Positions 26,165 to 40,189 of a stretch of DNA of 64,000 nucleotides are shown piece by piece. Every line of letters starts with the position of its first letter. Positions within the stretch are counted from its first letter, which is position 1. The stretch lies in assembly GCF_030499575.1 (NCBI RefSeq), contig NZ_JASTLC010000001.1:2318001-2382000 (forward strand). The letters run 5' to 3'. The notes beneath the pieces are model-generated. The model searched no databases, had not been told where the DNA came from, and was given only the letters and a program-made list of their open reading frames with translations. The stretch comes from Streptomyces sp. DG2A-72. Lineage in GTDB: Bacteria > Actinomycetota > Actinomycetes > Streptomycetales > Streptomycetaceae. The position numbers and the translations under genes are program-made.

Positions 26165-27112
26165 TCAGAAATCGAGGTGGGGGCAGGCGAGTTCGGCCAT
26201 GCGGCCGAACAGGCCGGGGCCGTCGAGCGGGGGCATGGAGGGGTCGAGTTCCCGGTAGACGGTGTGCACATTGACGGCGAGCCGTTCGCTCTCGTCCAGC
26301 TCGGCGAAGCGGCCGAGGCGGATGTCGCGTGCGGCGTCCAGGGCGGGCATTCCGGCGGTGAACCGGGTGGTTGCCTGCGTGTGGACGAATTCGAGGTAGT
26401 CGCGGATGTCCCGGACGGTCTTCTTGGTGGTGACCGGTCCGTGCCCGGGCACGATGGTGTCGGCGTCGAGACCGAGGAGCAGGTCGCAGGCGGCGAGCCA
26501 GTTGGTGAACGGGCCGTGCCACACGATGGGCGTGGCGCCGGCGAACACGATGTCGCCGGTGTAGACGACTCCGGCCCGTGGTACGTGGACGATCGTGTCG
26601 CCAGCGCTGTGCGCCGGTCCCACGTCGATCAGGCGGACCTCCGTACCGCCGACGTCCAGCACCAGCTCGCCCTCGAAGACGCGGCCCGGGAGGACGGGTT
26701 CGATGCCGGTGTAGTCGAAGGCGCCGAAGATCCGGCGGGCGAACCGCCCGGTGAGGTCCGGAGCGGCGGTCAGCTGTCGCATCTCGGCCGGACCCACCTG
26801 GCGCATGTCGGCCAGTGAGCCTCGGGCCGCGATGATCTCGGTATGGGCTACGAGCTGGTTGCCGAACCAGTGGTCGCCGTTGCCGTGGGTGTTGACCACG
26901 GTCGAGATGGGTGCGGTGGCGGTGACCGGAGTCAGGGCCTCGAGCATGGCCCGGGTAAGTCGCAGGTCGTAGAGGGTGTCGACGAGTAGGGACGCGTCCC
27001 GCCCGACGACCAGCCCGGCATTACTCATGCCCCAGCCGCCCCGGCCCGGCAGCCAGGCATGACAGCCGCCGCCGACGTCGACACGGCCCACGATGGGGAT
27101 TGCGGAAGCCAC
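26165..27112 (-). CDS. MBL-fold hydrolase with variant HGNGDH metal motif
   Basis: A 315-residue metallo-beta-lactamase-fold protein. The canonical HxHxDH reads NTHGNGDHWFGN, with His76, Asn78, Asp80 and His81, so the second histidine is asparagine. Later ligands are present in VGPAHSAGDTIVHVP, VVYTGDIVFAG and IVPGHGPV. GTG 27112 has AGGAGG just upstream. The change may alter metal occupancy at one site. The gene is divergent from a TetR gene at 27259, and fragments of close relatives occur at 29132 and 46806. Confidence 0.87.
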   Translation of the reverse strand: MASAIPIVGRVDVGGGCHAWLPGRGGWGMSNAGLVVGRDASLLVDTLYDLRLTRAMLEALTPVTATAPISTVVNTHGNGDHWFGNQLVAHTEIIAARGSLADMRQVGPAEMRQLTAAPDLTGRFARRIFGAFDYTGIEPVLPGRVFEGELVLDVGGTEVRLIDVGPAHSAGDTIVHVPRAGVVYTGDIVFAGATPIVWHGPFTNWLAACDLLLGLDADTIVPGHGPVTTKKTVRDIRDYLEFVHTQATTRFTAGMPALDAARDIRLGRFAELDESERLAVNVHTVYRELDPSMPPLDGPGLFGRMAELACPHLDF

Positions 27113-27891: not shown

Positions 27892-28217
27892 TCGGCGCGG
27901 AGGGACGGGCGGGCGCAGGCGAAGCGTCGCGCCGCCGAACTCCGCGAGCGCCACGGAAACAGAGGATCTCAGGTCAACTGGGCCTCCGGAACGGCTCCGG
28001 ACGGTGTGCGGACACCCGGGATCGTGCCCCCCCCGCGCGCCGGGCGCCGGGCATATGGTGCCGGTGTAGACACCACTGACGAAAGGGCCGAATGGCCATC
28101 GCGCCCACGCGTGGGGCGCACCGGCTTCCTGAACTGCGTCCCCTTGTCGGCGGCGGCTGAACCGTGGTTCTGGATCACCTTCAGTGCCGGAGCTACGAAG
28201 GGTCACCAAAACCGCGA
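27892..28217. other. No supported gene
   Basis: Downstream of the TetR gene there are short overlapping open frames but none with family features. The stretch leads into a fragment of an RraA-like gene. Confidence 0.4.
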
Positions 28218-28480
28218 TCATGAACCGCCGTGGGTGACGTCTTCCCCGGCGACGGCCCCGCTGTCCCGCAGTCCTCCGTCGGTCACGACCCCGGCCGCGC
28301 AGCGCTGGTGGGCGCGCAGGGCGAGGATGTCGCCGAGGGTGCCGGCGGAGGTGTCCCGGCGGGCGTCCATCACCGTGACGTGTCCGGGCCTGAGTTCCGC
28401 GATCGCCCGTTTCTGGGCGTTCATGCCGGTGCTGTACCGCTTGAACAGGTCCTCGCGCAGCGGCAGATAGCGCAGAGGCA
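28218..28480 (-). pseudogene. RraA-domain fragment, partial duplicate of the fusion gene at 40186
   Basis: About 80 residues encode the central part of an RraA-like domain, nearly identical to the RraA half of the FAH-RraA gene: LRYLPLREDLFKRY, TGMNAQKRAI, ELRPGHVTVMDARRD, AGTLGDILALRA and AAGVVTDGGLRDS. Both ends stop abruptly and no start codon or partner domain is present. It is a piece copied from, or shared with, the locus at about 40520-40740. Confidence 0.8.
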
Positions 28481-28483
28481 GAC

Positions 28484-28585
28484 CTGACCGCACCACTGGC
28501 CCAGCGCGTCAGCCACTGGACCGTGCACTACACCGCACGCCACCGCAGGACGAACCTCCTGCGCTCCCTGGCCGAGCAATGGTGA
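28484..28585 (+). other. Short coding remnant of unknown origin
   Basis: A 33-codon open frame ending in TGA reads like the tail of a protein (SHWTVHYTARHRRTNLLRSL then AEQW). It has no start and lies between the RraA fragment and an IS3 end. I do not recognise the family; a transposase tail is possible. Confidence 0.25.
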
Positions 28586-28957
28586 ACCGCCCCGGTTCGA
28601 ATGGAGACTCGATTCCGCGTAAGGGCCAGAGTCATGGCACGTCCCTCCTCCTACCCGCCTGAGCTGCGCAAGCGTGCGGTGCGCATGGTTGCCGAGGTCC
28701 GCGGTGACTACCCGACCGAGTCCGCCGCGATCAACGCGATCATGGTGAAGCTGGGCATCGGCTCGCGCGAGACGCTGCGCAAGTGGGTCTGCCAGGAGCA
28801 GATCGACTCCGGGCAGCGTCCGGGGACGACGACGGAGGAGTCCGAGCAGATCAAGGCGATGAAGAAGGAGATCGCCGAACTGAGGCGGGCCAACGAGATC
28901 CTGGCCCGGGCCGACGGGGCGGCACATCGCTGGAGCGTGCCGCGCGAGCCCCATTGA
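28583..28957 (+). mobile_element. IS3-family left end with truncated orfA
   Basis: The OrfA frame starts at ATG 28634 (MARPSSYPPELRKRAVRMVA) and contains the helix-turn-helix region and the leucine-zipper-like ESEQIKAMKKEIAELRRANEIL segment. After NEIL the sequence departs from the family, so the 3' part of orfA and all of orfB (the DDE catalytic part) are missing. TGAACCGCCCCGG at 28583 resembles the terminal repeat of actinobacterial IS3 elements. The copy cannot transpose by itself. Confidence 0.75.
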
Positions 28958-29058
28958 GGCGTGCCCCCGCGGTGGAGGTGTCGATCAGCTCTCCACCGGG
29001 CTGCGGAGGTACCCCTGCACGTTGCATGGGCCCAGTGCAGCACAGACGTACACAGGTA

Positions 29059-29121
29059 TTGACCCTCACCGAGTGCATCTTTAGATTGCACCTCATTAGC
29101 GGACTCTAGTCTATCAATAGA
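29059..29121 (+). promoter_or_regulatory. Promoter and operator-like site ahead of the MBL remnant and adenylation gene
   Basis: TTGACC at 29059-29064 and TAGATT at 29082-29087, 17 bases apart, fit a vegetative actinobacterial promoter well. Downstream, TCTAT-CA-ATAGA at 29110-29121 is an AT-rich palindrome extending to AGTCTAT/ATAGATT with one mismatch. Such sites precede the TetR-controlled genes nearby, so this may be the promoter of a lost MBL gene that now reads into the adenylation-domain gene. Confidence 0.55.
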
Positions 29122-29131
29122 TTCCCATCTC

Positions 29132-29241
29132 GACTTTGGTGACCTGCGCCTGACCTGGGCCATGCTCGACGGGCCAGCGCCGGTGACCGGCGCCGCGCAC
29201 GTCTCGACCGTGGCCAATACCCACGGCACCGGCGACCACCA
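29132..29241 (+). pseudogene. MBL-fold fragment fused to the upstream edge of the adenylation gene
   Basis: About 36 codons read DLRLTWAMLDGPAPVTG then HVSTVANTHGTGDH, matching DLRLTRAMLEALTPVTA and ISTVVNTHGNGDH of the MBL gene at 26165. No start codon and no remainder of the domain are present. It ends just before the ribosome binding site of the adenylation-domain gene, marking a recombination joint. Confidence 0.7.
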
Positions 29242-29256
29242 GGAGGCCCCGCGACC

Positions 29257-30795
29257 ATGTCCTTGCGTCAATTGAGCCACCTCACCCCCCGCGACCAGCG
29301 TCTCTTCTGGGAGTACGGCCGCGGCCCCACCGTCCCCGTCCCCGACCCGCTCGTCCACCGAGCCGTCGAACGGCAGGCCGCGACCGCCCCGCACACCGTG
29401 GCCGCCGAGCACCTGGGCGACCGGACCGACCGGATCACCTACGGCGAGCTCGACCGGCACGCCGACGCCCTCGCCGCCCGGCTGGCCCGCGAGGGCGTAC
29501 GCCCCGGTGACCACGTCGGCCTCTTCGTGCGCCGCTCGATCCCGATGCTCGTCGGCCTGCTCGGCATCCTCAAGGCGGGCGCCGCCTACGTCCCGCAGGA
29601 CATCGGCCTGGCGCCCCCGGCCCACCTCGCCCACGTCGTCCGCACCGCCCGCACCCGCGTCGTCCTCACGGTTGCCGAGCACGCCCACCGCGTGCCGCTG
29701 CCCGACGGCCACCGGATGATCACGCTGGACGCGCCACAGCCGTACGCCCCGAAACCGCGCACGCCGGTCCGCCCCGACGACGGCTGCTACGTCCTGTTCA
29801 CCTCCGGCACCACCGGCCGGCCCAACGGTGTGAAGGTCACCCACCGCAACGTCGCCAATATCCTGCTCACCGAACCCGGCGGCCTCGGCATCCGCCCCGG
29901 CGACCGGGTCGCCCAGCTCCTCAACGTCGCCTTCGACATGGCCGCCTGGGAGATCCTGGGCTGTCTCACCCACGGCGGCACCCTCGTCATCCGCGGCAAG
30001 GACATCGCGGCGGCCGCCCGCACCGCCGACGTCCTCATCGCGACCCCGACCGTGCTGTCCGGCATCGATCCGACGGCCTGCCCGAACGTCCGTACGGTCG
30101 CCGTGGCCGGGGAGCCCTGCCCGCGTCCGCTCGCCGACCGGTGGGCCCGCACCGCCGCCTTCCACAACTGCTGCGGCCCGACCGAGACGACCATCGTCAA
30201 CACCATGCACCGCCATCGCCCGTCCGACCCGCTGCTCAGCATCGGCCGCCCCACCCCCAACAACACGGTCTACGTCCTCGACGCCGACCGCCGCCCGCTG
30301 CCCATCGGCGAGGTGGGGGAGATGTGGGCGGGCGGCGACTGCGTGTCGGCCGGCTATCTGGGCAACGACGCCCTCAACGCCGAGCGCTACGCCCCGGACC
30401 CGTTCCTGGGCGCCGGCCACCGGATGTTCCGCACCCGCGACCTCGGCCGCTGGACCGCCGACGGCGCACTCGAACACCTCGGCCGCACCGACGACCAGGT
30501 CAAGGTGCGCGGCTTCCGGGTCGAGCTCGACTGCGTCTCCTCTGTGCTGGAGCGGGTCGAGGGCTGCCTGCGCGCGGTGACCCTGAAGCGGGACGCCCGC
30601 ACCCTCGTCTCCTTCGTCTGCCCGGCGGACGTCGACCCCGACACGGCCCGGCGCGCGGTGGCGGACGCGCTGCCGTACTACTGCGTCCCCGAATATGTCA
30701 TGCCGCTGCCATTCTTACCCGAGACCGACCGCGGCAAGATCGACAAACAGGCACTGCTGCGGATGGTCGAGGAGCGCATGGCGGTGGCCCGATGA
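29257..30795 (+). CDS. Stand-alone NRPS-type adenylation protein
   Basis: A 512-residue adenylate-forming enzyme from ATG 29257, with AGGAGG ten bases upstream. Core motifs are ordered as in peptide-synthetase A domains: LKAGAAYVPQD near 105-115, A3 FTSGTTGRPNG at 181-191 (Asn where the usual Lys stands), A4 FDMAAWE at 226-232 with the Asp that binds an amino-acid amino group, A5 CCGPTETT, A7-A8 TRDLGRW and RTDDQVKVRGFRVEL, and the A10 lysine in DRGKIDKQAL. No carrier, condensation or thioesterase domain follows. Its stop overlaps the start of a membrane reductase-like gene (ATGA). The amino-acid preference is inferred from A4; the acceptor of the adenylate is unknown. Confidence 0.85.
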   Translation: MSLRQLSHLTPRDQRLFWEYGRGPTVPVPDPLVHRAVERQAATAPHTVAAEHLGDRTDRITYGELDRHADALAARLAREGVRPGDHVGLFVRRSIPMLVGLLGILKAGAAYVPQDIGLAPPAHLAHVVRTARTRVVLTVAEHAHRVPLPDGHRMITLDAPQPYAPKPRTPVRPDDGCYVLFTSGTTGRPNGVKVTHRNVANILLTEPGGLGIRPGDRVAQLLNVAFDMAAWEILGCLTHGGTLVIRGKDIAAAARTADVLIATPTVLSGIDPTACPNVRTVAVAGEPCPRPLADRWARTAAFHNCCGPTETTIVNTMHRHRPSDPLLSIGRPTPNNTVYVLDADRRPLPIGEVGEMWAGGDCVSAGYLGNDALNAERYAPDPFLGAGHRMFRTRDLGRWTADGALEHLGRTDDQVKVRGFRVELDCVSSVLERVEGCLRAVTLKRDARTLVSFVCPADVDPDTARRAVADALPYYCVPEYVMPLPFLPETDRGKIDKQALLRMVEERMAVAR

Positions 30796-32039
30796 CCACG
30801 TCGCTCCGCCGCGAGGCCGTCGAACTGCCCCCGCTCACCTCGCTCCCGCGCCGCCTGCTCAAGCACCCACGCCTGATGCACCACAACCGCCTGGCGGCGC
30901 TCGTCCTGACGGCCAACCTGGCCTTCCTGTGGGCGAGTTGGTCCCCCACCCCGCGGACCATGGGCCACGCGGCCCTCGCCAACCTGGCCCTCGCCGTCCT
31001 CGTCCGTCAGCAGTACGTCATCAACCTCTTCTTCCGGCTGGCCACCTGGGCGCCGCCCACCTGGCCGCTGAAGATCCGCTGGACGCTGGGCAAGGTGTAC
31101 CACTTCGGCGGGCTGCACATCGGCGGGGCGCTCGCGGGCGCCGCCTGGTTCCTGGCGCTGCCCCTCACCGGGGCCGACGGAGCACTGGCGGTGGTGAGCT
31201 GGACCCTGGTCGCCCTGCTCGCCGTGATCGTCGCCACCGCCCTCCCGCCGTTCCGCTCCCGCCACCACGACCACTTCGAGAAGATCCACCGCTTCGGCGG
31301 CTGGAGCGCCCTCGCCCTCTTCTGGATCCACACGCTGCTGTCCACGCCGGGCCCGGTGGAGGTGGGTGTCCTGGCGGTCGTCACCTTCAGCGTCGCGCTG
31401 CCCTGGCTACGGCTGCGCAAGGTCGACGTCCGCCTCGAACGGCCCTCCCCGCACGTCGTCCTGGCCCGCATCGACCACGGCGAGACCCCCTTCGCGGGCT
31501 CCTCGACGGCGATCAGCCGCAGCCCGCTGAAGGAGTGGCACTCCTTCGCCAACGTCCCGGCCCCCGGCGAGTCCGGCTTCCGGCTCACCATCTCGCGCGC
31601 CGGGGACTGGACGGGCGCCTTCATCGACGACCTGCCCTCCCGGGTATGGGTCAAGGGCATCACCACGGCGGGCGTCGCCAACATCGAGACCCTGTTCAAG
31701 AAGGTGGTCTACGTCGCCACCGGCAGCGGCATCGGCCCCTGTCTGCCCCATCTGCTGGCCGCCGAGGTCCCCTCCCGCCTGGTCTGGGCGACCCGGGACC
31801 CCCGCACGACCTACGGCGACGCCCTCGTCGACGAGATCCTCGCCGTCCAGCCCGACGCCCTCATCTGGGACACCTCCCGGCACGGCAAGCCCGACATGGT
31901 GCGCCTCGCGTACGCCGCGTACCGCGACTTCGGTGCCGAGGCGGTGATCTGCATCTCCAACAAGAAGCTCACCTGGCAGGTCGTACACGGACTGGAGCGG
32001 CGCGGGATACCGGCGTACGGCGCGATCTGGGACTCGTAA
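30792..32039 (+). CDS. Ferric-reductase-like membrane oxidoreductase coupled to the adenylation gene
   Basis: A 415-residue protein with about six hydrophobic helices in residues 30-205, then a soluble domain. Histidines 104 and 109 (KVYHFGGLHIGG) and 166 and 180 (HRFGGWSALALFWIH) lie in or near helices and could bind haem, as in ferric reductases. The soluble part carries WVKGI and YVATGSGIGPCLPHLL at about 307-322, like the nucleotide-binding loop of ferredoxin-NADP reductases. Start ATG 30792 overlaps the adenylation gene stop, so the pair is made together. I infer that it donates electrons at the membrane to a product of the adenylating enzyme; the reaction is not known to me. Confidence 0.7.
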   Translation: MTTSLRREAVELPPLTSLPRRLLKHPRLMHHNRLAALVLTANLAFLWASWSPTPRTMGHAALANLALAVLVRQQYVINLFFRLATWAPPTWPLKIRWTLGKVYHFGGLHIGGALAGAAWFLALPLTGADGALAVVSWTLVALLAVIVATALPPFRSRHHDHFEKIHRFGGWSALALFWIHTLLSTPGPVEVGVLAVVTFSVALPWLRLRKVDVRLERPSPHVVLARIDHGETPFAGSSTAISRSPLKEWHSFANVPAPGESGFRLTISRAGDWTGAFIDDLPSRVWVKGITTAGVANIETLFKKVVYVATGSGIGPCLPHLLAAEVPSRLVWATRDPRTTYGDALVDEILAVQPDALIWDTSRHGKPDMVRLAYAAYRDFGAEAVICISNKKLTWQVVHGLERRGIPAYGAIWDS

Positions 32040-32067: not shown

Positions 32068-32836
32068 ATGAACAACCTCAAGATCGAACGCGACGGCGCC
32101 GTGGTGACCGTACGCCTGCACCGCCCGCAGGTGCTCAACGCCCTCAGCGGTGGCCTGCTGGCCGAACTCCTGGACACCCTGCGCCCGTTGGACGCCGACC
32201 CCGAGGTGGGCTGCTTCGTCGTCACCGGCTCGGAGAAGGCGTTCGCGGCGGGCGCCGACATCAAGGAGATGGCGGGAAAGACGGCCGCGGAGATGGCGGC
32301 CGAGGACTGACTTCGGGAACTGGGAGGACTTCACGGCCCTCCGCACCCCGAAGATCGCCGCCGTCAACGGCTATGCCCTCGGCGGCGGTTGCGAGCTGGC
32401 GATGATGTGCGATCTGGCCATCGCGGGCGAGTCGGCGGTCTTCGGCCAGCCGGAGATCAAGCTCGGCGTGATCCCCGGCATCGGCGGCACCCAGCGCCTG
32501 ACCCGTCTCGTCGGCCGGGCGAAGGCGATGGACCTGATCCTCACCGGCCGCACGATGGACGCGCGGGAGGCTGCAAGCTGCGGTCTCGTCTCCCGAGTCG
32601 TCCCGGACGACCAGGTCCTGCCCGCGGCCCGGCAAGCAGCCGCAACGATCGCCTCGTACGGCCGCGCAGCCGTCACGGCGGCCCGCGAGTGCGTCGACCG
32701 AGCCCTCGAAACCGGCCTGCGCGACGGCCTTCTCTTCGAACGCCGCGTCTTTCACGCCCTGTTCGCGACCGATGACCAGAAGGAGGGCATGACCGCGTTC
32801 CTGGAGAAACGGCCGCCCGTCTTCAAGGGGCGCTGA
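32068..32836 (+). pseudogene. Enoyl-CoA hydratase/isomerase with a one-base frameshift
   Basis: Crotonase-family gene of about 256 codons. The first frame starts at ATG 32068 (GGAAG-type site upstream) and has the oxyanion-hole block [12 protein letters not shown]. It stops at 32308. The sequence continues in the next frame with [32 protein letters not shown] and [14 protein letters not shown] to 32836. The break is explained by one extra T in GAGGACTGACTTC near 32307. All family residues are otherwise present, so this is a recent mutation or a sequence error. It follows the membrane gene by 28 bases and could be part of that operon. Confidence 0.85.
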
Positions 32837-33414: not shown

Positions 33415-34077
33415 ATGCCAAGAACTCGACTTGCTCGCATCGCTCGCAGTCTGTTCCTCATAGCCGCCGGCGCGATGCCGGTCCTGTCCATCCCGCTGGC
33501 CGTCAGCGGTTTCCTGCCCATGCACGCCGAGGCGCTGTTCCTGGTGGCCCCCATGTCGTTGCTGGCCGGGGCCCTCATGATGCGGCACTCACCAGAAGCG
33601 GCATGGGCTCTGAAGGGCTTGATCGCCGGGCTGGTCGCGGTGACCGCCTATGACGCGATCCGGATCCCCATGCTGCTCGCCGGAGTCTGGCCGGACTTCA
33701 TCCCCCGCCTTGGTGGATGGGTCCTCGGCAACGACGGAACGCACCTGCTCACCGGATACCTGTGGCGTTACCTGGGTGACGGCGGAGGAATCGGCCTGGC
33801 CTTCTTCGTCTTCTGCGGAATGGTGGCATCAGTCCGCCCCGCCCTGATCTCCGCTCACCCGATCCTGCTGTCCATCGGCTACGGAATCTTCATATGGAGC
33901 GGGCTCCTTGTCACGGTCGCCGTCATTCCCCATGGCGCAGCCATGCTTTTCCCCCTGAACCCGGTGAGCTTTTCCCTGAGTCTTCTGGGGCATCTCATCT
34001 ACGGTGGCGTGCTTGGCCTGTTCCTGTCGCGGACGGTGGATCGAACCGCCATGGGAGCGGCTTCGCAACCTCGGTGA
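33415..34077 (+). CDS. Multi-spanning membrane protein of unknown function
   Basis: A 220-residue hydrophobic protein with about six predicted membrane segments (near residues 11-30, 38-56, 67-82, 124-140, 150-172, 184-204). A conserved-looking polar motif [23 protein letters not shown] lies between segments three and four. I do not recognise the family. ATG 33415. It converges on the CoA-transferase remnants, whose beta gene is truncated where this gene ends. Confidence 0.65.
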
Positions 34078-34633
34078 CACGGCCTCCGCAAGCCGCGGTG
34101 ACCGTGCGTCGGCCCGTGATGATCCGGTGGACACACGCCTCGCCCGTGAGCGGGAGGGCGCACTCCATGAGGATCTTCGGACTGCAGTCCTTGGCGGTGT
34201 GTTCCATGAGGACGATGACACGGCGGGCGCCGTGGACCAGATCCATCGCCCCACCCATGCCCTTGACCATCTTGCCGGGGATCATCCAGTTGGCCAGGTC
34301 ACCGTGCTGCGACACCTGCATGGCGCCGAGTACGGCGGTGTCGATGTGCCCGCCGCGGATCATGCCGAAGGACAGGGCCGAGTCAAAGAAGGAGGCCCCC
34401 GGCAGGACGGTGACGGTCTCCTTGCCGGCGTTGATCAGGTCCGGGTCGACCTGGTCGGCGGTCGGGTAGGGGCCGGTGCCGAGGATGCCGTTCTCGGAGT
34501 GCAGGACGACGTGCACGCTGGACGGGAGGTGGCCGGGGATCAGGGTGGGCAGGCCGATGCCGAGGTTGGCGTAGGAGCCGTCGGTGAGTTCGGCGGCGGC
34601 GCGGGCGGCCATCTGGTCGCGGGTCCAGCTCAT
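33995..34633 (-). pseudogene. 3-Oxoacid CoA-transferase subunit B, C-terminus lost
   Basis: The N-terminal two thirds are typical: [16 protein letters not shown], the active-site glutamate region [32 protein letters not shown] and the [14 protein letters not shown] block. After EACVHRIIT at about 34120 the family sequence (usually about 40 more residues ending in a V-E-E-I/V-x-x-T-x-A-x-F pattern) is replaced by unrelated residues overlapping the membrane-protein gene. Start ATG 34633 overlaps the subunit A stop. Probably inactive. Confidence 0.75.
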
Positions 34634-35398
34634 GCGCGTATGGTCCCTCGTGTCGAAGACGCGGAAATGGAAAGGTGTTCGATCTCTTTGTCACCGGCCT
34701 GAGCGGCCGTCAGCTTCACCACTCGCTGCACGAAGACGCCCGGAAGGTGCACCTCGTCGGCGCTCAACTCGCCCGGTTCCACGAGTTCTTCGACCTCGGC
34801 GACGGTGATGCGGCCGGCCATCGCCGCGAGGGGTTGAAGTTGGCCGACGCCTTGCGGAAGACCAGGTTGCCGTGCCGGTCGCCGCGCCAGGCCCGTACGA
34901 GGGCGAAGTCCGTGGTGATGCCGTGCTCCAGGACGTACGGGCGGCCGTGGAGGTCGCGGGTCTCCTTGGGCGGGCAGGCGACGGCGACCGTGCCGTCGGA
35001 GGCATACCGCCAGGGCAGACCGCCGCGCGCCACCTGCGTGCCCACGCCCGCCGGTGTGTAGAAGGCGGGGATGCCCGCGCCGCCCGCCCGCAGCCGCTCG
35101 GCGAGCGTGCCCTGCGGGACGAGCTCGACCTCCAACTCGCCGGACAGGTACTGGCGGGCGAACTCCTTGTTCTCCCCGTCACACGCGCGATGCGGCCGGA
35201 GGCGAGCAGCACGCCCAGGCCGCGCCCGTCGACACCGCAGTTGTTCGAGACGACGGACAGACCCGTGGCGCCCCGCTCGTGCAGGGCTCGGATCAGGGCC
35301 TCGGGTACACCGCTGAGGCCGAAGCCACCGACGGCCAGCGACGCGCCGTCGGAAATGACGGCGACCGCTTCGGCGGCGCCGGAACTCACTTTGTCCAT
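34630..35398 (-). pseudogene. 3-Oxoacid CoA-transferase subunit A with two frameshifts
   Basis: Three successive frames together give a subunit A: from ATG 35398 [25 protein letters not shown] and [18 protein letters not shown]; then from about 35180 [28 protein letters not shown] sequence, [15 protein letters not shown] and [21 protein letters not shown]; then from about 34825 [22 protein letters not shown] to the stop at 34630. Breaks lie near 35190 and 34830. The enzyme would move CoA from succinyl-CoA to a 3-oxoacid such as 3-oxoadipate or acetoacetate. Confidence 0.8.
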
Positions 35399-35411
35399 AG
35401 GGAATCGTCTT

Positions 35412-35510
35412 TCAGTGCGCGGCGCCCGGGAGCACCGTGGACCAGCCGCCGTCGACGACGAGGTTGGCGCCGGTGATGTACGAGGCCTCGTAGGAGACGA
35501 GGAAGAGGTC
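35412..35510 (-). pseudogene. C-terminal tail of an SDR dehydrogenase
   Basis: About 30 codons upstream of the CoA-transferase read LVSYEASYITGANLVVDGGW then STVLPGAAH, the usual end of a short-chain dehydrogenase. All earlier parts are missing, replaced by an FAH fragment on the other strand beginning at 35511. Confidence 0.65.
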
Positions 35511-36048
35511 TTCCAGTCCGGCGTCAACTACCGGCAGCACGTGATCGACCTGGAGGTGGCCCACCGTGCGCCCGACGATCCGCGCACGCTCGAGGATGCG
35601 CGGGCGGAGATCGCCGCGGTCATGGACCGGCGGGCGGCCGAGGACCTGCCGTACGTGTTCATCGGCCTGCCGAGCGCGATCACCGGTCCCTACGACGACG
35701 TCGTCCTGCTGGCGTGGGCCGAACAGCCGGGCTGGGAGCTGGAGTTGGCGGCTGTGACCGCCAAGTCGGCCTATCGGGTATCCGTGGCGGAGGTACTGGA
35801 GTATGTCGCCAGGTACACGATCGCCAACGACCTCACCGACCGCGCCACCGTCTTCCGCCGGGACATGAAGGCCATCGGTACCGACTGGCTGCGCTGCAAG
35901 AACGCGCCCGGTTTCACCCCGCTGGGCCCGTGGATCGTGCCGGCCGGGTCGATCGCCGATCCCGGTGATCTGCGGGTCACACTGAAGCTCAACGGCGAGA
36001 CCATGCAGGACGAGTCGACCAAGGACATGCTCTTCGGCATGGGCACGG
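35511..36048 (+). pseudogene. Internal fragment of an FAH-family isomerase/hydrolase
   Basis: About 178 codons of open frame match the middle of an FAH-domain enzyme: FQSGVNYRQHVIDLEVAHRA, DLPYVFIGLPSAITGPYDDV, WELELAAVTAKSAYRVS, YTIANDLTDRATVFRRDMKAIGTDWL split across the domain, and NAPGFTPLGPW. Both ends are missing; the frame has no start at its left edge and switches to unrelated sequence after KDMLFGM. Inactive remnant. Confidence 0.75.
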
Positions 36049-36052
36049 CACC

Positions 36053-36550
36053 GCAGCGGCGCCCGAGACGGCCGCCTGGCCCACCCCCGAACTGGCCGCC
36101 ATGCTGCGCTCCGACGCGCCCGCCTTAGCCGACTACCAGCCGGGCGGACCCTGGCTGCCGGCCGCCACCGGGATCCCGCGCGAACTGTTCTACGCGCACG
36201 ACTGGGTGGACCCCGGCCGCTGGGACCTGTGGCTCTGCGAGAACTATCCGGCACACCGGCAGACCATGCGGGAGACGCTGGCCGAGTGGGTCGACTCCGT
36301 GGCCGAGTTCGCCTGCCGGCGCGGTGCTCCCGCCGTCTTCGGTGAGGGCGTCGTAGGGTACACCCCGCTCCTGACACGCTTCGAGGAGGACGCCGTCGGC
36401 AAGGACATCGCGGAGTTCGTCGTCGACCGCTGCCTCGCCGCCGGGTTCCACGGCGTCGTCCTGACCTCCAACGCGGCCCACCACCACCCCATGTGGCACA
36501 CCGACCAGGACTGGATGCGGCGGGTCAACTCCCGGATCACCACAGGCTGA
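36053..36550 (+). pseudogene. C-terminal fragment of a cellulase-like protein
   Basis: About 165 codons ending at 36550 read ELFYAHDWVDPGRWDLWLCE, ETLAEWVDSVAEFACRRG, PAVFGEGVVGYTPLLTRFEE and AGFHGVVLTSNAAHHHPMW, resembling the end of actinobacterial cellulase-like (glycoside hydrolase) proteins. The N-terminus is replaced by the FAH fragment. Family call is moderate. Confidence 0.45.
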
Positions 36551-36781
36551 ACGCGACCCGAAGGCAGCCCGCAGCCGAGGCGACAACGCGGTCGGTCAGA
36601 GCGTACACGCGGTCGGGGCGGGCACCGGGGCGTACGGGCACCAGCTCCCGAGAGCGGCCCGAGTGATGCCTCGCCCCGGCTTCTCCCGGAGCTCGCGGCA
36701 CACCAAGGCCCCCCCTCGCGGCAGCAGTTGCTGCTCGCGTCGCTGCTGCATCGCCCCGCAACGCCCCCGTACGTCGGCGGG

Positions 36782-37792
36782 TCAGCCGAGGCCGTCGGCT
36801 CCCACGGTCACGGCGGATTCGTCGAGCAGGGCGTCGGAGACGGGCTGTGGGCTCCCTTCGAGGTCGAGGACGGGGGTGGCTTCCTTGTACCAGGACTCGA
36901 TGACCGCGTTGCCCCAGAAGTCGCGGCGGCGGTCGTCGTGGACGTTCCAGCGGTAGGTCTCGTGGTCGGGGTCGCCGGTGTAGTAGTCGGAGGTGTAGAT
37001 CTCCAGGCGGTGGCCGTCGGGGTCGCGCAGGTAGAGGTAGAAGGCGTTGGAGACGCCGTGCCGTCCCGGGCCGCGTTCGATGTGGTGCTCCTTGTGCAGC
37101 GCGCCGAAGATGTCGGCGGTGCGCAGCACCTGGTGGGACTCGTGGGTGGCGACGCCGAGGTGGTGCAGGCGGGGTCCGGCGCCGCCGGTGAAGGCGACGT
37201 CGTGGACGGTCTGCTTGCGGTACATCCAGGCGGCGTACAGCTCGTGCTCGTCGCCCTCGATGGTCTCCGAGCAGCCGAAGCCGAGCGACTCGTAGTGGGC
37301 GTAGGCGGCGGGGATGTCGGGGGTGCAGATGTTGAAGTGGTCGAGGCGGGCGGCCTCGGCGCCGTGGCGCGGGTCGTAGCGCTGGATGAGGCGCTCGGCG
37401 TGCTCGATGTCGTAGAAGAACTCGACGGGGAAGCCGAGCGGGTCGATGACGCGGACGGCGTCGCCGACACCGGGTGTGCCTTCGCCCTTCCGGATACGCC
37501 GCACCGGTCGGCCGAGGCCGGTGAAGAACTTCTCCGCCTTGTCGACGTCCTCGGGGGTGCGGACACGGTAGGCGATGTGGTCGAGGGCGGCCACGCCTCC
37601 TCGGCGCAGCACGAGGGAGTGATGGGTGAGTTCGTCCGTGCCGCGCAGGCAGAGGGTCCCCGAGTCCTCGTACTGGACGTGGAAACCGAGCATGTCGACC
37701 CAGAACCAGCGGGATGCGGCGAGGTCGGTGACGGCGAGCTGGGCGTAGGCGGAACGGATGACGTCGGGGGCGTCCGGGTGTGCGTTGGTCAT
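36782..37792 (-). CDS. hpaD: Class I extradiol dioxygenase, homoprotocatechuate 2,3-dioxygenase type
   Basis: Two-domain vicinal-oxygen-chelate dioxygenase of 336 residues. The 2-His-1-Glu iron site is visible in LDHFNICTPDI, LHHLGVATHESHQ and HRLEIYTSDYY. The N-terminal domain (LAVTDLAASRWFWVDMLGF) is the catalytically empty repeat. It should open the ring of 3,4-dihydroxyphenylacetate. Its ATG overlaps the hpaE-type stop (ATGA), and it is the last gene of the leftward cluster. This chemistry is separate from the MhpB route at 9644. Confidence 0.87.
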   Translation of the reverse strand: MTNAHPDAPDVIRSAYAQLAVTDLAASRWFWVDMLGFHVQYEDSGTLCLRGTDELTHHSLVLRRGGVAALDHIAYRVRTPEDVDKAEKFFTGLGRPVRRIRKGEGTPGVGDAVRVIDPLGFPVEFFYDIEHAERLIQRYDPRHGAEAARLDHFNICTPDIPAAYAHYESLGFGCSETIEGDEHELYAAWMYRKQTVHDVAFTGGAGPRLHHLGVATHESHQVLRTADIFGALHKEHHIERGPGRHGVSNAFYLYLRDPDGHRLEIYTSDYYTGDPDHETYRWNVHDDRRRDFWGNAVIESWYKEATPVLDLEGSPQPVSDALLDESAVTVGADGLG

Positions 37793-39276
37793 CGGGCGGC
37801 TCCGAAGCGGGGGGTGTGGACGTCGCCGAGGGCGACGTGGACGATCTTCGACTCGGTGTAGAAGTCGATGCTGTGCGCGCCGCCTTCACGGCCGACGCCG
37901 GAGGCCTTGACGCCGCCGAAGGGGGTGCGCAGGTCGCGGACGTTGTGGGAGTTGATCCAGACCATGCCGGAATCGACGGCGTGGGCGATGCGGTGGCCGC
38001 GCTTGAGGTTCGAGGTCCAGATGTAGGCGGCCAGGCCGAACTGCGTGGCGTTGGCCAGCTCGACCGCCTCGGATTCGTCGTCGAAGGGACCGACGGCGAC
38101 GACGGGGCCGAAGATTTCCTCCTGAAAGATACGGGCGTCGCGTTCGACATCGGCGAAGACGGTCGGTTGGAGGTAGTTGCCGTCGGGGAGGTGGTCGGGG
38201 CGGGTGCCGCCGGCGACGAGGCGGGCCTCCTTCTTGCCGATCTCGACGTAGTCCAGGACGCGTTCGTAGTGTTCGGGGTGCACCAGCGCGCCGACCTCGG
38301 TGGCCGGGTCGGAGGGGAGTCCGACGCGTACGTGCGCCGCCCGCTCGGCCAGGCGGCGGGTGAACTCCTCGTACACCGGGCGTTCCACCAGGAACCGTGA
38401 ACCGGCCGTCCAGCGTTCGCCGTTGAGGGAGAACACGCCGAAGACGACGGAGTCCAGGGCGGCTTCGAGGTCGGCGTCGGCGAAGACGATGGCCGGGGAC
38501 TTGCCGCCCAGCTCCATCGAGGTGGTCTTCAGGTGCTGGGCACTGGAGCGGATGATGTGGCGGCCCGTGTCGGTGGAGCCGGTGAAGGAGATCAGCGGTA
38601 CGTCCGGGTGGTCGACCAGCGCCTGACCGGCCTCCTCCCCCAAGCCGTGGACGATGTTGGCCACCCCGGCGGGCACTCCTGCCTCGGCGAAGATCTCCGG
38701 CCACAGCGAGGCCGACAGCGGGGTCCACTCGGCGGGCTTGAGGACCAGCGTGCAGCCGGAGGCCAGAGCCGGGGCCAGCTTCCAGCTCTCCAGCATGAAG
38801 GGGGTGTTCCAGGGCGTGATCAGCCCGGCCACCCCGACGGGCTTCCGTACGACGTAGCTGAACTGGTCGCCACCTTGCCGGAACGCCTCCTCGCCGAGGG
38901 CGACGATGACGTTGGCGAAGTAGCGGAAGTTCTCCGCCGCCCGGCGGGCCTGGCCCCTCGCCTGGGTGATGGGGAGTCCCGTGTCGTACGACTCGAAGGA
39001 CGCCAGCCGCTCGTGGCGGGCCTCGACGGCGTCCGCGATGCGGTTCAGAACGTTCGCGCGCTCCCGGTTGCCCAGGTACCACCAAGCGGGAAAGGCGGAG
39101 TCGGCGGCTGCCACCGCCCGTTCGACGTCGGCCGGGCCGCCGGCCGCGGCCTTGGCGTAGGGCGTGTTGGACACCGGATCCGCCACGGGGAACGTCCGTC
39201 CGTCGGCGCTGTCGACCAGTTCGCCGCCGATCCAGTGCTGGATGACGGGCGGCAAGTTCTCGATGCTCATGGTCAT
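37789..39276 (-). CDS. hpaE: 5-Carboxymethyl-2-hydroxymuconate semialdehyde dehydrogenase homologue, catalytic Cys replaced by Trp
   Basis: Aldehyde dehydrogenase of 495 residues closest in pattern to HpaE. NAD-binding and general-base motifs are intact: ITPWNTPFMLESWK, SFTGSTDTGRH, MELGGKSPAIV. The nucleophile block, usually NGERCTAGSR, reads SLNGERWTAGSR, so residue 289 is Trp (TGG, bases 38410-38412 on the reverse strand) instead of Cys (TGC). With no nucleophile, dehydrogenase activity should be lost. ATG 39276 (or 39270) overlaps the upstream gene end. The reading frame is otherwise complete, so this may be a recent mutation or a base-call error. Confidence 0.88.
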   Translation of the reverse strand: MTMSIENLPPVIQHWIGGELVDSADGRTFPVADPVSNTPYAKAAAGGPADVERAVAAADSAFPAWWYLGNRERANVLNRIADAVEARHERLASFESYDTGLPITQARGQARRAAENFRYFANVIVALGEEAFRQGGDQFSYVVRKPVGVAGLITPWNTPFMLESWKLAPALASGCTLVLKPAEWTPLSASLWPEIFAEAGVPAGVANIVHGLGEEAGQALVDHPDVPLISFTGSTDTGRHIIRSSAQHLKTTSMELGGKSPAIVFADADLEAALDSVVFGVFSLNGERWTAGSRFLVERPVYEEFTRRLAERAAHVRVGLPSDPATEVGALVHPEHYERVLDYVEIGKKEARLVAGGTRPDHLPDGNYLQPTVFADVERDARIFQEEIFGPVVAVGPFDDESEAVELANATQFGLAAYIWTSNLKRGHRIAHAVDSGMVWINSHNVRDLRTPFGGVKASGVGREGGAHSIDFYTESKIVHVALGDVHTPRFGAAR

Positions 39277-40189
39277 GCTCCGATCTGTGCGGTGAGGTCG
39301 CCGCCCACGGAGAGCAGTGCGCGGATCTTGGCGAGGCCCGTGTCGGTCGGGCCGGTCAACGGCGGCCGAACGAAGTCCGAGGCGATGCGGCCCTGCTGGG
39401 CGAGGACCCACTTGGCGGGCGCCGGGTTGGTCTCGACGAACAGCAGGTCGACCAACGGGTGCAGGCGGTAGTGCAGGTCACGGGCCGCGTCGAACTCGTC
39501 GGCCTCCCACAGCTCGTACATCCGTGCCACCGCGCCGGGAGCGAGGTTGGCGACCGCGCTCACGAAGCCCGCCCCGCCGAGTGCCAGCAGTGGCAGGCAG
39601 AGCAACTCGATGCCCGACCACACCAGCAGCGACCGCCCACAGGCGTGCAGCACGCGGGAGAAGTGCTCGAAGTCCTTCGTGGTCTCCTTCACCCCGACGA
39701 AGTTCTCGAAGTCGGTGAACAGCCGCTTCACCGTCTCCGGTGCGATGTCGACGACGGTACGCGAAGGCACGTTGTACGCGACGATCGGAAGGTCCGGGAA
39801 CTCCCGGGCCACCCTCGCGTACCACTGGTAGAGGGCCTCCTGCGTGGGGCGGGCGTAGTACGGTGTGATGACAGGGCCGCGTCAGCGCCCAATTCCTGTG
39901 CGGCGGCGGTGAGTTCAAGCGTCTCGTGGAGTTTGTGGGAGCCGGTACCGGGCAGGAACGGTACCCGGTCGCCGATCTCCTCGACCGCCGTGCGCATCGC
40001 GGCGACGCGCTCCGTGACGCTCGGCTCGCCCGTCGAGCCGCCGAGCGAGATGCCGTGCGAACCGGACTCCAGCTGGAAGCGGATCAGGCCGCGCAGGCTG
40101 TCGTGGTCGAGGGCACCGTCCGCGGTGAACGGCGTGACGACGGGGGCGATAGACCCGCTGATCGCCGACGGGTCGCTGCGGAACTTCAC
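39273..40189 (-). pseudogene. DapA-family aldolase/lyase with one-base frameshift
   Basis: Dihydrodipicolinate-synthase-family gene of about 305 codons. GTG 40189 overlaps the upstream stop (GTGA) with AAGGGAG before it. First frame: GSIAPVVTPFTADGALDHDS, HGISLGGSTGEPSVT; second frame: VAREFPDLPIVAYNVPSRTV and the Schiff-base lysine in FVGVKETTKDF. The join needs one added base near 39872 (CTG-TC-ATC should be CTG-GTC-ATC). In actinobacterial hpa clusters such a protein could act as the 2-oxoacid aldolase. As written it is broken. Confidence 0.82.

What the first reader, a model, noticed from the sequence alone, without database searches (positions are those of the whole stretch)
29257..32039. 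Adenylation-domain enzyme translationally coupled to a ferric-reductase-like membrane protein
The first gene is a complete NRPS-type A domain with no carrier or condensation domain; the second is a multi-helix protein with paired histidines and an FNR-like nucleotide loop. Their ATGA overlap implies one functional unit. An amino-acid-activating enzyme tied to a membrane electron-transfer protein suggests membrane-linked reduction or modification of an amino acid adenylate. From memory, fused versions of this idea occur in fungi; I cannot verify that here.
Basis: partly seen in the sequence, partly recalled or inferred. Interest (0 to 1): 0.75.

Follow-up and report, generated by a model that had tools for sequence, protein, structure and literature searches.

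The report
Conserved three-gene amino-acid/NOX-fold redox module
Two overlapping Streptomyces genes, one predicted to activate an amino acid and one a membrane protein shaped like an NADPH oxidase, are two thirds of a three-gene unit (the third is an enoyl-CoA hydratase) found together in five bacterial phyla and resembling an unexplained fungal development protein, so the unit probably makes a widespread but still unknown small molecule.

Summary
In detail: a complete stand-alone NRPS-type adenylation (A) domain (29257-30795) overlaps by ATGA a six-helix membrane protein (30792-32039). The latter is predicted to fold as an NADPH oxidase/ferric reductase along its whole length, but only the cytoplasm-side haem-type histidines are conserved. 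In this copy it is frameshifted; a second copy of the unit in the same genome has it intact. Among the 80 best-scoring of 430 confirmed relatives (Actinomycetota, Bacteroidota, Pseudomonadota, Chloroflexota, one cyanobacterium), 78 have the A domain next to or fused with the membrane protein and 73 have A, membrane protein and ECH in a row. The A-domain pocket code is almost invariant (96 of 100 rows), and the ECHs form their own cross-phylum clade (84 of 85). Fused fungal versions (TmpB, TmpL, ChNPS12) are in print, with an ECH-type gene reported near tmpB. Five completed literature searches showed no account of the bacterial triad; five later ones failed. Most likely it is a carrier-free biosynthetic module: amino acid, activated ester (probably CoA), NAD(P)H-driven redox step at the membrane, hydration, export. 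The chemistry and product are inferred.

The parts
29257..30795 (+). Stand-alone NRPS-type adenylation domain (512 aa, P0001); PheA-position code D-M-W-T-A-A-C-I-V-K, catalytic K494 present
   Evidence: PF00501 E 4.4e-69; TIGR01733 345.8 bits, above cut-off; code
30792..30795 (+). ATGA stop/start overlap between the two genes
   Evidence: sequence; same kind of overlap in 52 of 74 unfused loci
30792..32039 (+). Six-helix membrane flavoprotein with predicted NADPH oxidase/ferric reductase fold (415 aa, P0002; Pfam PF26733 precomputed for it and the 119 other hits listed)
32068..32836 (+). Enoyl-CoA hydratase gene of the same unit, broken by a frameshift: codons 1-80 in one frame (stop at 32308-32310), the rest in the frame of the open stretch 32150-32836
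   Evidence: PF00378 E 1.3e-54 on the second stretch; unbroken in copy 2 of this genome (L002) and in L004-L014

Best explanation
The pair is part of a self-contained biosynthetic module of three genes: A domain, PF26733 membrane flavoprotein, enoyl-CoA hydratase. Shown: the three are kept together, in this order, in five bacterial phyla, and their distances go together. Inferred steps: (1) the A domain activates one particular alpha-amino acid, the same in all lineages, probably hydrophobic, as an adenylate; (2) with no carrier protein present, the aminoacyl group is probably passed to CoA (or used directly) at the cytoplasmic face of the membrane, where the A domain is held by fusion or by co-translation; (3) the NOX-fold protein passes electrons from NAD(P)H through FAD to one haem or metal site at the inner face and carries out a redox or oxygenation step on that activated amino acid, leaving an alpha,beta-unsaturated thioester; (4) the hydratase adds water to it; (5) the product is released and in many bacteria probably exported, under control of a two-component system where one is linked. 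The fungal TmpB/TmpL proteins would be fused versions of the same module. The module claim itself I hold at about 0.9; the confidence below is for the chemical route.
For: Linkage: of the 80 best-scoring of 430 confirmed loci, 78 have the A domain adjacent or fused (16 fused) and 73 also ECH downstream. Distance correlations A-membrane 0.83, A-ECH 0.81, membrane-ECH 0.76 over 73 loci; largest of 500 permutations per pair 0.13. ECH is specific to the unit: 84 of 85 triad ECHs form one clade holding 0 of 15 other ECHs from the same genomes (SH-aLRT 96; the exception is L030), and both catalytic Glu are present in 85 of 85. A domains: triad members in four genomes of other phyla are 53-63% identical to P0001, while every other match in those genomes and in G000 (E 1e-30 or better) is at most 44%, this genome's second copy (87%) aside. 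Full pocket code DMW[ST][AI]A[CSAG]I[VI]K in 96 of 100 rows; Asp235, Trp239 and Lys517 equivalents indicate an alpha-amino acid. No carrier: a strict carrier-motif scan finds none in the ORFs of L001-L094, while it finds 5 in an NRPS frame of this genome as a positive control. The fungal acyl-activating enzyme AfeA works in one pathway with a separate TmpA membrane protein from a contiguous gene (PMC4804170, abstract and outline), which suggests that this kind of membrane domain pairs with adenylate-forming enzymes more than once. Export and regulation: DUF6733 after ECH in 22 of 24 Bacteroidota loci, an HlyD-type gene in 7 of 8 Enterovibrio/Grimontia loci, histidine kinase plus response regulator in 21 loci (14 within 300 nt).
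Against: No substrate, cofactor or product has been tested. CoA use by the A domain is a guess from the ECH and the missing carrier; a carrier elsewhere in the genome is not excluded, and this genome has NRPSs with carriers. PF26733 proteins also occur without A or ECH: alone (L087; Pantoea and Calothrix plasmids) or fused to a cyclic-nucleotide-binding domain (17 of the 120 hits listed), so the membrane domain may have a more general redox role. The haem ligands are not proven: H104 and H159 are in 202 of 202 sequences, H109 in 199, H166 only in 182. The fused model does not fix how the two domains face each other (pTM 0.60). This window's own ECH gene is broken, and none of the linked export or regulatory genes was seen beside this genome's two copies.
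Confidence: 0.38

Rival explanations
1. The membrane protein is an NADPH oxidase-like source of superoxide or peroxide (or a quinone/iron reductase), and the A domain is a sensor or regulator that tunes it to an amino acid, as EF-hands do in NOX5 (recalled); ECH is only loosely tied to it.
For: NOX fold; a sister class carries a cyclic-nucleotide-binding domain in place of the A domain; a catalase-cluster gene directly downstream in 8 of 8 Pseudomonas loci (family checked on L086); TmpL loss disturbs redox balance in two fungi (PMC2766074, abstract).
Against: Histidines for an outer haem are missing, so electrons have no obvious way across the membrane; the A domain keeps its catalytic lysine and an almost invariant pocket; ECH is linked and co-inherited about as tightly as the other two; A. 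nidulans tmpB mutant conidia are reported as not sensitive to oxidative stress (PMC4804170, section 18).
Confidence: 0.2
2. The A domain loads a carrier protein or NRPS/PKS line encoded elsewhere, and the membrane protein and ECH tailor the carrier-bound amino acid.
For: Stand-alone A domains with separate carriers are well known (recalled); this genome encodes multi-domain NRPSs with carriers.
Against: No strict carrier motif in ORFs of L001-L094 (positive control); a loose motif gives one hit, about 7 kb from the triad in L088. No NRPS gene among the shared neighbourhood clusters annotated, the triad's own A domain apart, though three ORFs carry a condensation-like motif in L074, L075 and L085. 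ECHs act on CoA esters as a rule (recalled).
Confidence: 0.12
3. It is an iron-reduction system tied to a siderophore-like amino acid derivative.
For: Ferric-reductase relationship of the membrane domain; a TonB-dependent receptor follows in L081, one of the few single loci whose neighbours I annotated; a siderophore-interacting protein lies about 5 kb from a lone PF26733 gene on a Pantoea plasmid.
Against: No iron-uptake family among the shared neighbourhood clusters annotated; ECH has no role in it. Single-locus neighbours were not surveyed for iron genes.
Confidence: 0.05
4. Catabolic operon: the amino acid is activated and broken down through a beta-oxidation-like route, with ECH as in valine or isoleucine breakdown.
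For: The ECH is close to ordinary short-chain hydratases (best NCBIfam PRK05862, best PDB match EchA8).
Against: No thiolase or acyl-CoA dehydrogenase among the shared clusters annotated (clusters shared by two or three taxa were only partly annotated); linked export and regulatory genes and the reported fungal signalling phenotype point to a made product.
Confidence: 0.1

Closest known systems
TmpB (Aspergillus nidulans AN9129), TmpL (Alternaria brassicicola, A. fumigatus), ChNPS12 (Cochliobolus heterostrophus)
   Same: NRPS-type A domain followed by a ferric-reductase-like membrane domain (six helices and FAD/NAD(P) domain described for TmpL), no carrier or condensation domain found in TmpL; GSGIGP loop in TmpL; TmpB has D, W, C, G, I and K at the PheA-equivalent positions where P0001 has them; an enoyl-CoA hydratase/isomerase gene is reported next to tmpB.
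   Different: Here the two parts are separate overlapping genes (fused in 16 of 80 bacterial loci); fungal sequences were not in hand, so homology rests on the papers' descriptions; the role in sporulation signalling or redox balance is fungal only.
NADPH oxidases / ferric reductases (SpNOX, NOX2, NOX5)
   Same: Predicted whole-chain fold; WHxF and GDWT stretch in line with NOX2; GSGIGP nucleotide loop.
   Different: Only cytoplasm-side haem-type histidines are conserved; partnered with an A domain and ECH.
Bacterial stand-alone A domains in the ChNPS12 clade (Hahella, Salinispora; Bushley and Turgeon 2010, PMC2823734)
   Same: Probably the same A-domain group: single A domains from bacteria nested with ChNPS12.
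   Different: The passages I saw describe them only as stand-alone A domains; a membrane gene or ECH next door is not mentioned there.
TmpA-AfeA of A. nidulans
   Same: An acyl-activating enzyme and a homologous membrane flavoprotein in one pathway, from contiguous genes.
   Different: AfeA is 4-coumarate-ligase-like, not an NRPS A domain. That TmpA belongs to PF26733 is inferred from its 55% similarity to TmpB as reported.

Membership tests
TmpB/TmpL/ChNPS12 (A domain + ferric-reductase-like membrane domain) | NRPS-type A domain without carrier or condensation domain | tested here: met
TmpB/TmpL/ChNPS12 (A domain + ferric-reductase-like membrane domain) | Six membrane helices plus FAD/NAD(P) domain with GSGIGP | tested here: met
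   predicted model and loop charges; TmpL motif from PMC2766074 section 7
TmpB/TmpL/ChNPS12 (A domain + ferric-reductase-like membrane domain) | Single fused polypeptide | tested here: not met
   two overlapping genes here; fused in 16 of 80 relatives
TmpB/TmpL/ChNPS12 (A domain + ferric-reductase-like membrane domain) | Direct sequence relationship to the fungal proteins | not testable with these tools
   no fungal sequence was obtained; residue-level comparison from PMC4804170 only
NADPH oxidase/ferric reductase superfamily | Fold of membrane and dehydrogenase domains | tested here: met
NADPH oxidase/ferric reductase superfamily | Two stacked haems held by four helix histidines (recalled) | tested here: not met
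   besides H30, helix-region His conserved in at least half of 202 sequences only at 104, 109, 159 and 166, all at cytoplasmic ends; none at outer positions
NADPH oxidase/ferric reductase superfamily | Bound haem and FAD, superoxide or ferric reduction activity | not testable with these tools
   needs purified protein
Nonribosomal peptide synthetase | Carrier and condensation domains in the protein or next door | tested here: not met
   9-39 residues after GKIDK; no strict carrier motif in ORFs of L001-L094, 5 found in an NRPS of this genome as control; three ORFs in L074, L075 and L085 had a condensation-like motif
Enoyl-CoA hydratase (crotonase) | Both catalytic glutamates | tested here: met
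   85 of 85 triad ECHs, copy 2 of this genome among them; this window's frameshifted gene was not in that set

The most novel reading that the evidence does not exclude
A NOX-fold protein has been turned into a self-sufficient membrane oxygenase or desaturase: electrons from NAD(P)H reach a single inner-face haem or metal site (invariant H104, H159, E163 with H109/H166) that oxidises a carrier-free aminoacyl-CoA (or adenylate), and ECH hydrates the resulting double bond. The module would make one and the same amino-acid-derived signal or redox protectant in five bacterial phyla and in fungi, a shared small-molecule language that has not been identified.
Probability: 0.15. Interest if true: 0.88.

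Novelty: new variant of a known kind. Interest (0 to 1): 0.62.

Why it matters
The fungal half (TmpB/TmpL) has reported phenotypes in sporulation and redox balance, but the papers I read give no substrate or product. The bacterial triad supplies a missing partner (ECH), shows that the A-domain pocket is nearly fixed across phyla, and splits the long fungal protein into separate soluble and membrane pieces that can be expressed and assayed. Genome-mining programs may list such units as orphan NRPS-like clusters (inference), so one solved product could annotate many genomes.

Tried and rejected
No relative was found in viral contigs (18 pattern matches, none confirmed). No fungal sequence was obtained: protein searches list only the best 120 rows, and the rows that carry a name were bacterial. 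Weak N-terminal matches (30-43% identity, E 4e-5 to 1e-3) in Streptomyces genomes were dropped as chance; a 40-residue second match in G094 (E 1.5e-9) and the partial G026 match with a stop were also left out of the full-length count. The upstream flank 28000-29256 has no DNA match in the loci fetched and was not treated as part of the unit. The aromatic-catabolism-like genes to the right (CoA transferase, extradiol dioxygenase-like, aldehyde dehydrogenase) were considered and rejected as part of the unit: among the 45 clusters printed, the one seen to take in one of them links the window's aldehyde dehydrogenase with two Enterovibrio loci. A sequence-profile search of the membrane family against PDB gave no significant hit (best E 0.41, NOX2); the NOX relationship rests on the predicted fold and the motifs. 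A VIA-align row list can be filled by one domain, so absent families there prove nothing. Clusters 3-7 were judged shadow ORFs of the triad genes and not annotated. Clusters 12-16 and 18 (Flavobacteriaceae) are housekeeping or general genes such as polyphosphate kinase, Ppx/GppA, MiaE and DNA polymerase III; cluster 23 had no family.

Seven of the 80 lack part of the triad: L038, L051 and L091 end within 0.4 kb after the membrane gene, L082 is a short contig starting at it with no ECH behind it, L081 and L086 have no ECH next door, and L087 has neither partner. L030 has a different ECH (38%, outside the clade). The correlations leave out L030 and the Streptomyces loci before L014, and species relatedness was not removed. 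The ECH tree holds 15 of the 38 non-triad ECH matches, those for which a locus was kept. In one search the 100 rows include both copies of this genome twice; 4 rows depart (2 lack the last column, 1 has G at position 235, 1 is a fragment). Neighbour families were checked on examples only (DUF6733 on L019 and L022, kinase and regulator on L020, catalase on L086 and L046, HlyD on L032); the rest go by protein clusters.
Full report

Histidines. In 202 family members, the helix region keeps His at 104 (202 of 202), 109 (199), 159 (202) and 166 (182), besides a less conserved H30 (82%); E163 is invariant. The four sit at the cytoplasmic ends of helices 3 and 5. H166 lines up with NOX2 H209 in a very weak profile alignment; that H209 is a haem ligand is recalled. 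No conserved His stands where an outer haem would be held. So the protein looks like a NOX with one haem (or another metal site) at the inner face: electron delivery into the inner leaflet rather than across the membrane. This is inference from sequence.

The third gene. Twenty-eight bases after gene B an enoyl-CoA hydratase gene begins (32068). In this copy it runs for 80 codons, meets a stop, and continues in another frame (within 32150-32836), so it is frameshifted or the assembly has an error. A second copy of the whole unit, its A and membrane proteins 87-88% identical, lies at about 3.122 Mb of the same genome with an unbroken ECH, and L004 to L014, 11 further actinobacterial loci fetched (ten from the genus, one from another family), each show A, membrane protein, ECH.

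Spread and linkage. A scan of species genomes with a PF26733 alignment gave 430 confirmed loci; the best 80 were kept. By record title they come from Actinomycetota, Bacteroidota, Pseudomonadota, Chloroflexota and one cyanobacterium. Of these 80, 78 have the A domain beside or fused to the membrane gene (16 fused) and 73 also have ECH behind it on the same strand. Of the seven misses, three are contig ends. Among 74 unfused loci (62 of the 80 plus L002 and L004-L014), 52 have the 4-base NTGA overlap in the membrane frame. In the genus, 17 genomes (this one included) of the 150 drawn have a full-length membrane-gene match and one more a fragment; in a draw of 396 genomes of the phylum 3 had one, this one included. 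The unit is therefore patchy in Actinomycetota but stable inside.

One orthologous set. In 14 genomes the triad ECH was the best match to the Bacteroidota triad ECH (64-78% identity, the query itself apart); the next ECH lay at 61% or less where there was one, the window's broken copy aside. A tree puts 84 of 85 triad ECHs in one clade (SH-aLRT 96) with 0 of 15 other ECHs inside (15 of the 38 non-triad matches were in the tree); the exception is L030. Triad A domains stand apart in the same way: 53-63% in four other genomes, against at most 44% for every other match listed in those and in G000, its second copy aside. Pairwise distances of the three proteins correlate at 0.76-0.83 over 73 loci, against at most 0.13 in permutations. 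Part of this reflects species relatedness, which was not removed.

Pocket and catalytic residues. At the PheA specificity positions the A domains read DMW[ST][AI]A[CSAG]I[VI]K in 96 of 100 rows (positions mapped from motifs, PheA residues recalled). D, W and K are those that hold an alpha-amino acid; the code resembles the phenylalanine type (recalled) with a bulkier residue, M, at position 236. TmpB has D238, W242, C307, G309, I315 and K495 at equivalent places (PMC4804170, section 15); P0001 has the same letters there. The ECHs keep both catalytic Glu in 85 of 85. No carrier domain is attached, and no strict carrier motif occurs in ORFs of L001-L094; the same pattern finds five carriers in an NRPS frame of this genome, and a looser one finds a single hit about 7 kb from the triad in L088.

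Neighbours. Behind ECH: DUF6733 (signal peptide and outer-membrane character by eye) in 22 of 24 Bacteroidota loci, both misses on contigs cut within 0.2 kb of the last triad gene; a catalase-cluster gene in 8 of 8 Pseudomonas loci, followed by a cytochrome b561 gene in the one annotated (L086); an HlyD-type export gene in 7 of 8 Enterovibrio/Grimontia loci. A histidine kinase and response regulator pair is near the triad in 21 loci from Pseudomonadota, Actinomycetota and Bacteroidota, within 300 nt in 14, on the triad's strand in 8 of those 14 (families checked on L020 only). None of these neighbour clusters includes a gene beside this genome's two copies. The other widely shared clusters that I annotated are housekeeping or general genes. 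The neighbours suggest a regulated, exported product with some link to oxidants; this is inference.

Not every PF26733 protein has these partners: 17 of the 120 listed hits carry a cyclic-nucleotide-binding domain instead, and isolated copies exist (L087; plasmids of Pantoea and Calothrix).

What is known. I read the abstract and sections 15, 17 and 18 of PMC4804170, the abstract and sections 6 and 7 of PMC2766074, and passages of PMC2823734 and PMC3689640. They establish the fused fungal proteins, flavin binding by TmpL, plasma-membrane location of TmpB and a sporulation phenotype, and they report an enoyl-CoA hydratase/isomerase gene next to tmpB; AN9129-AN9130 is listed as a cluster of its own (that AN9130 is the ECH gene is not stated there). 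PMC2823734 notes bacterial stand-alone A domains nested in the ChNPS12 group. None of the text I saw mentions a bacterial membrane gene or ECH beside them. The listings showed no paper on the bacterial triad; searches failed, so absence from print is not established.

Verdict. The finding is real and larger than reported. Membership in the TmpB/TmpL/ChNPS12 kind is met for architecture and motifs, not met for fusion, and untested by direct sequence comparison. Mechanism: carrier-free activation of one amino acid, redox chemistry at the inner membrane face, hydration by ECH. Only the anatomy and the linkage are shown.

Noticed in passing
G000:C1:3121247-3124826 (L002, L003): Second copy of the whole unit in the same genome, 87-88% identical in A and membrane proteins, with an unbroken ECH; no other of the 150 genomes searched in the genus had two full-length membrane-gene matches.
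   Followed up: partly
window 28601-29256: A transposase-type HTH frame (PF01527) and, 17 bases before gene A's start, a 46-residue stretch 57% identical to the metallo-beta-lactamase-fold protein encoded at 26165-27112 (-): a rearranged junction upstream of the unit.
   Followed up: partly
L019, L022 and 20 other Bacteroidota loci, after ECH: DUF6733 (PF20507), a family of unknown function, is a near-constant fourth gene (22 of 24 loci); the triad gives it a functional context.
   Followed up: partly
P0208, P0216, P0222, P0227 and 13 other proteins: PF26733 membrane flavoproteins with a cyclic-nucleotide-binding domain (PF00027), a NOX-fold class possibly controlled by cAMP or cGMP.
   Followed up: no
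L036 2-757: The end of a second PF26733 gene (68% identical to P0002) lies upstream of a complete triad in a Chloroflexales contig.
   Followed up: no
L064, L065, L069, L080, L084, L086, L089, L094 after the triad: Catalase-cluster gene downstream of the unit in all 8 Pseudomonas loci; in L086, which lacks the ECH, a cytochrome b561 gene follows it.
   Followed up: partly
window 33995-39411: Oppositely oriented genes of an aromatic or acid breakdown type: CoA transferase, an extradiol dioxygenase-like protein, an aldehyde dehydrogenase.
   Followed up: no
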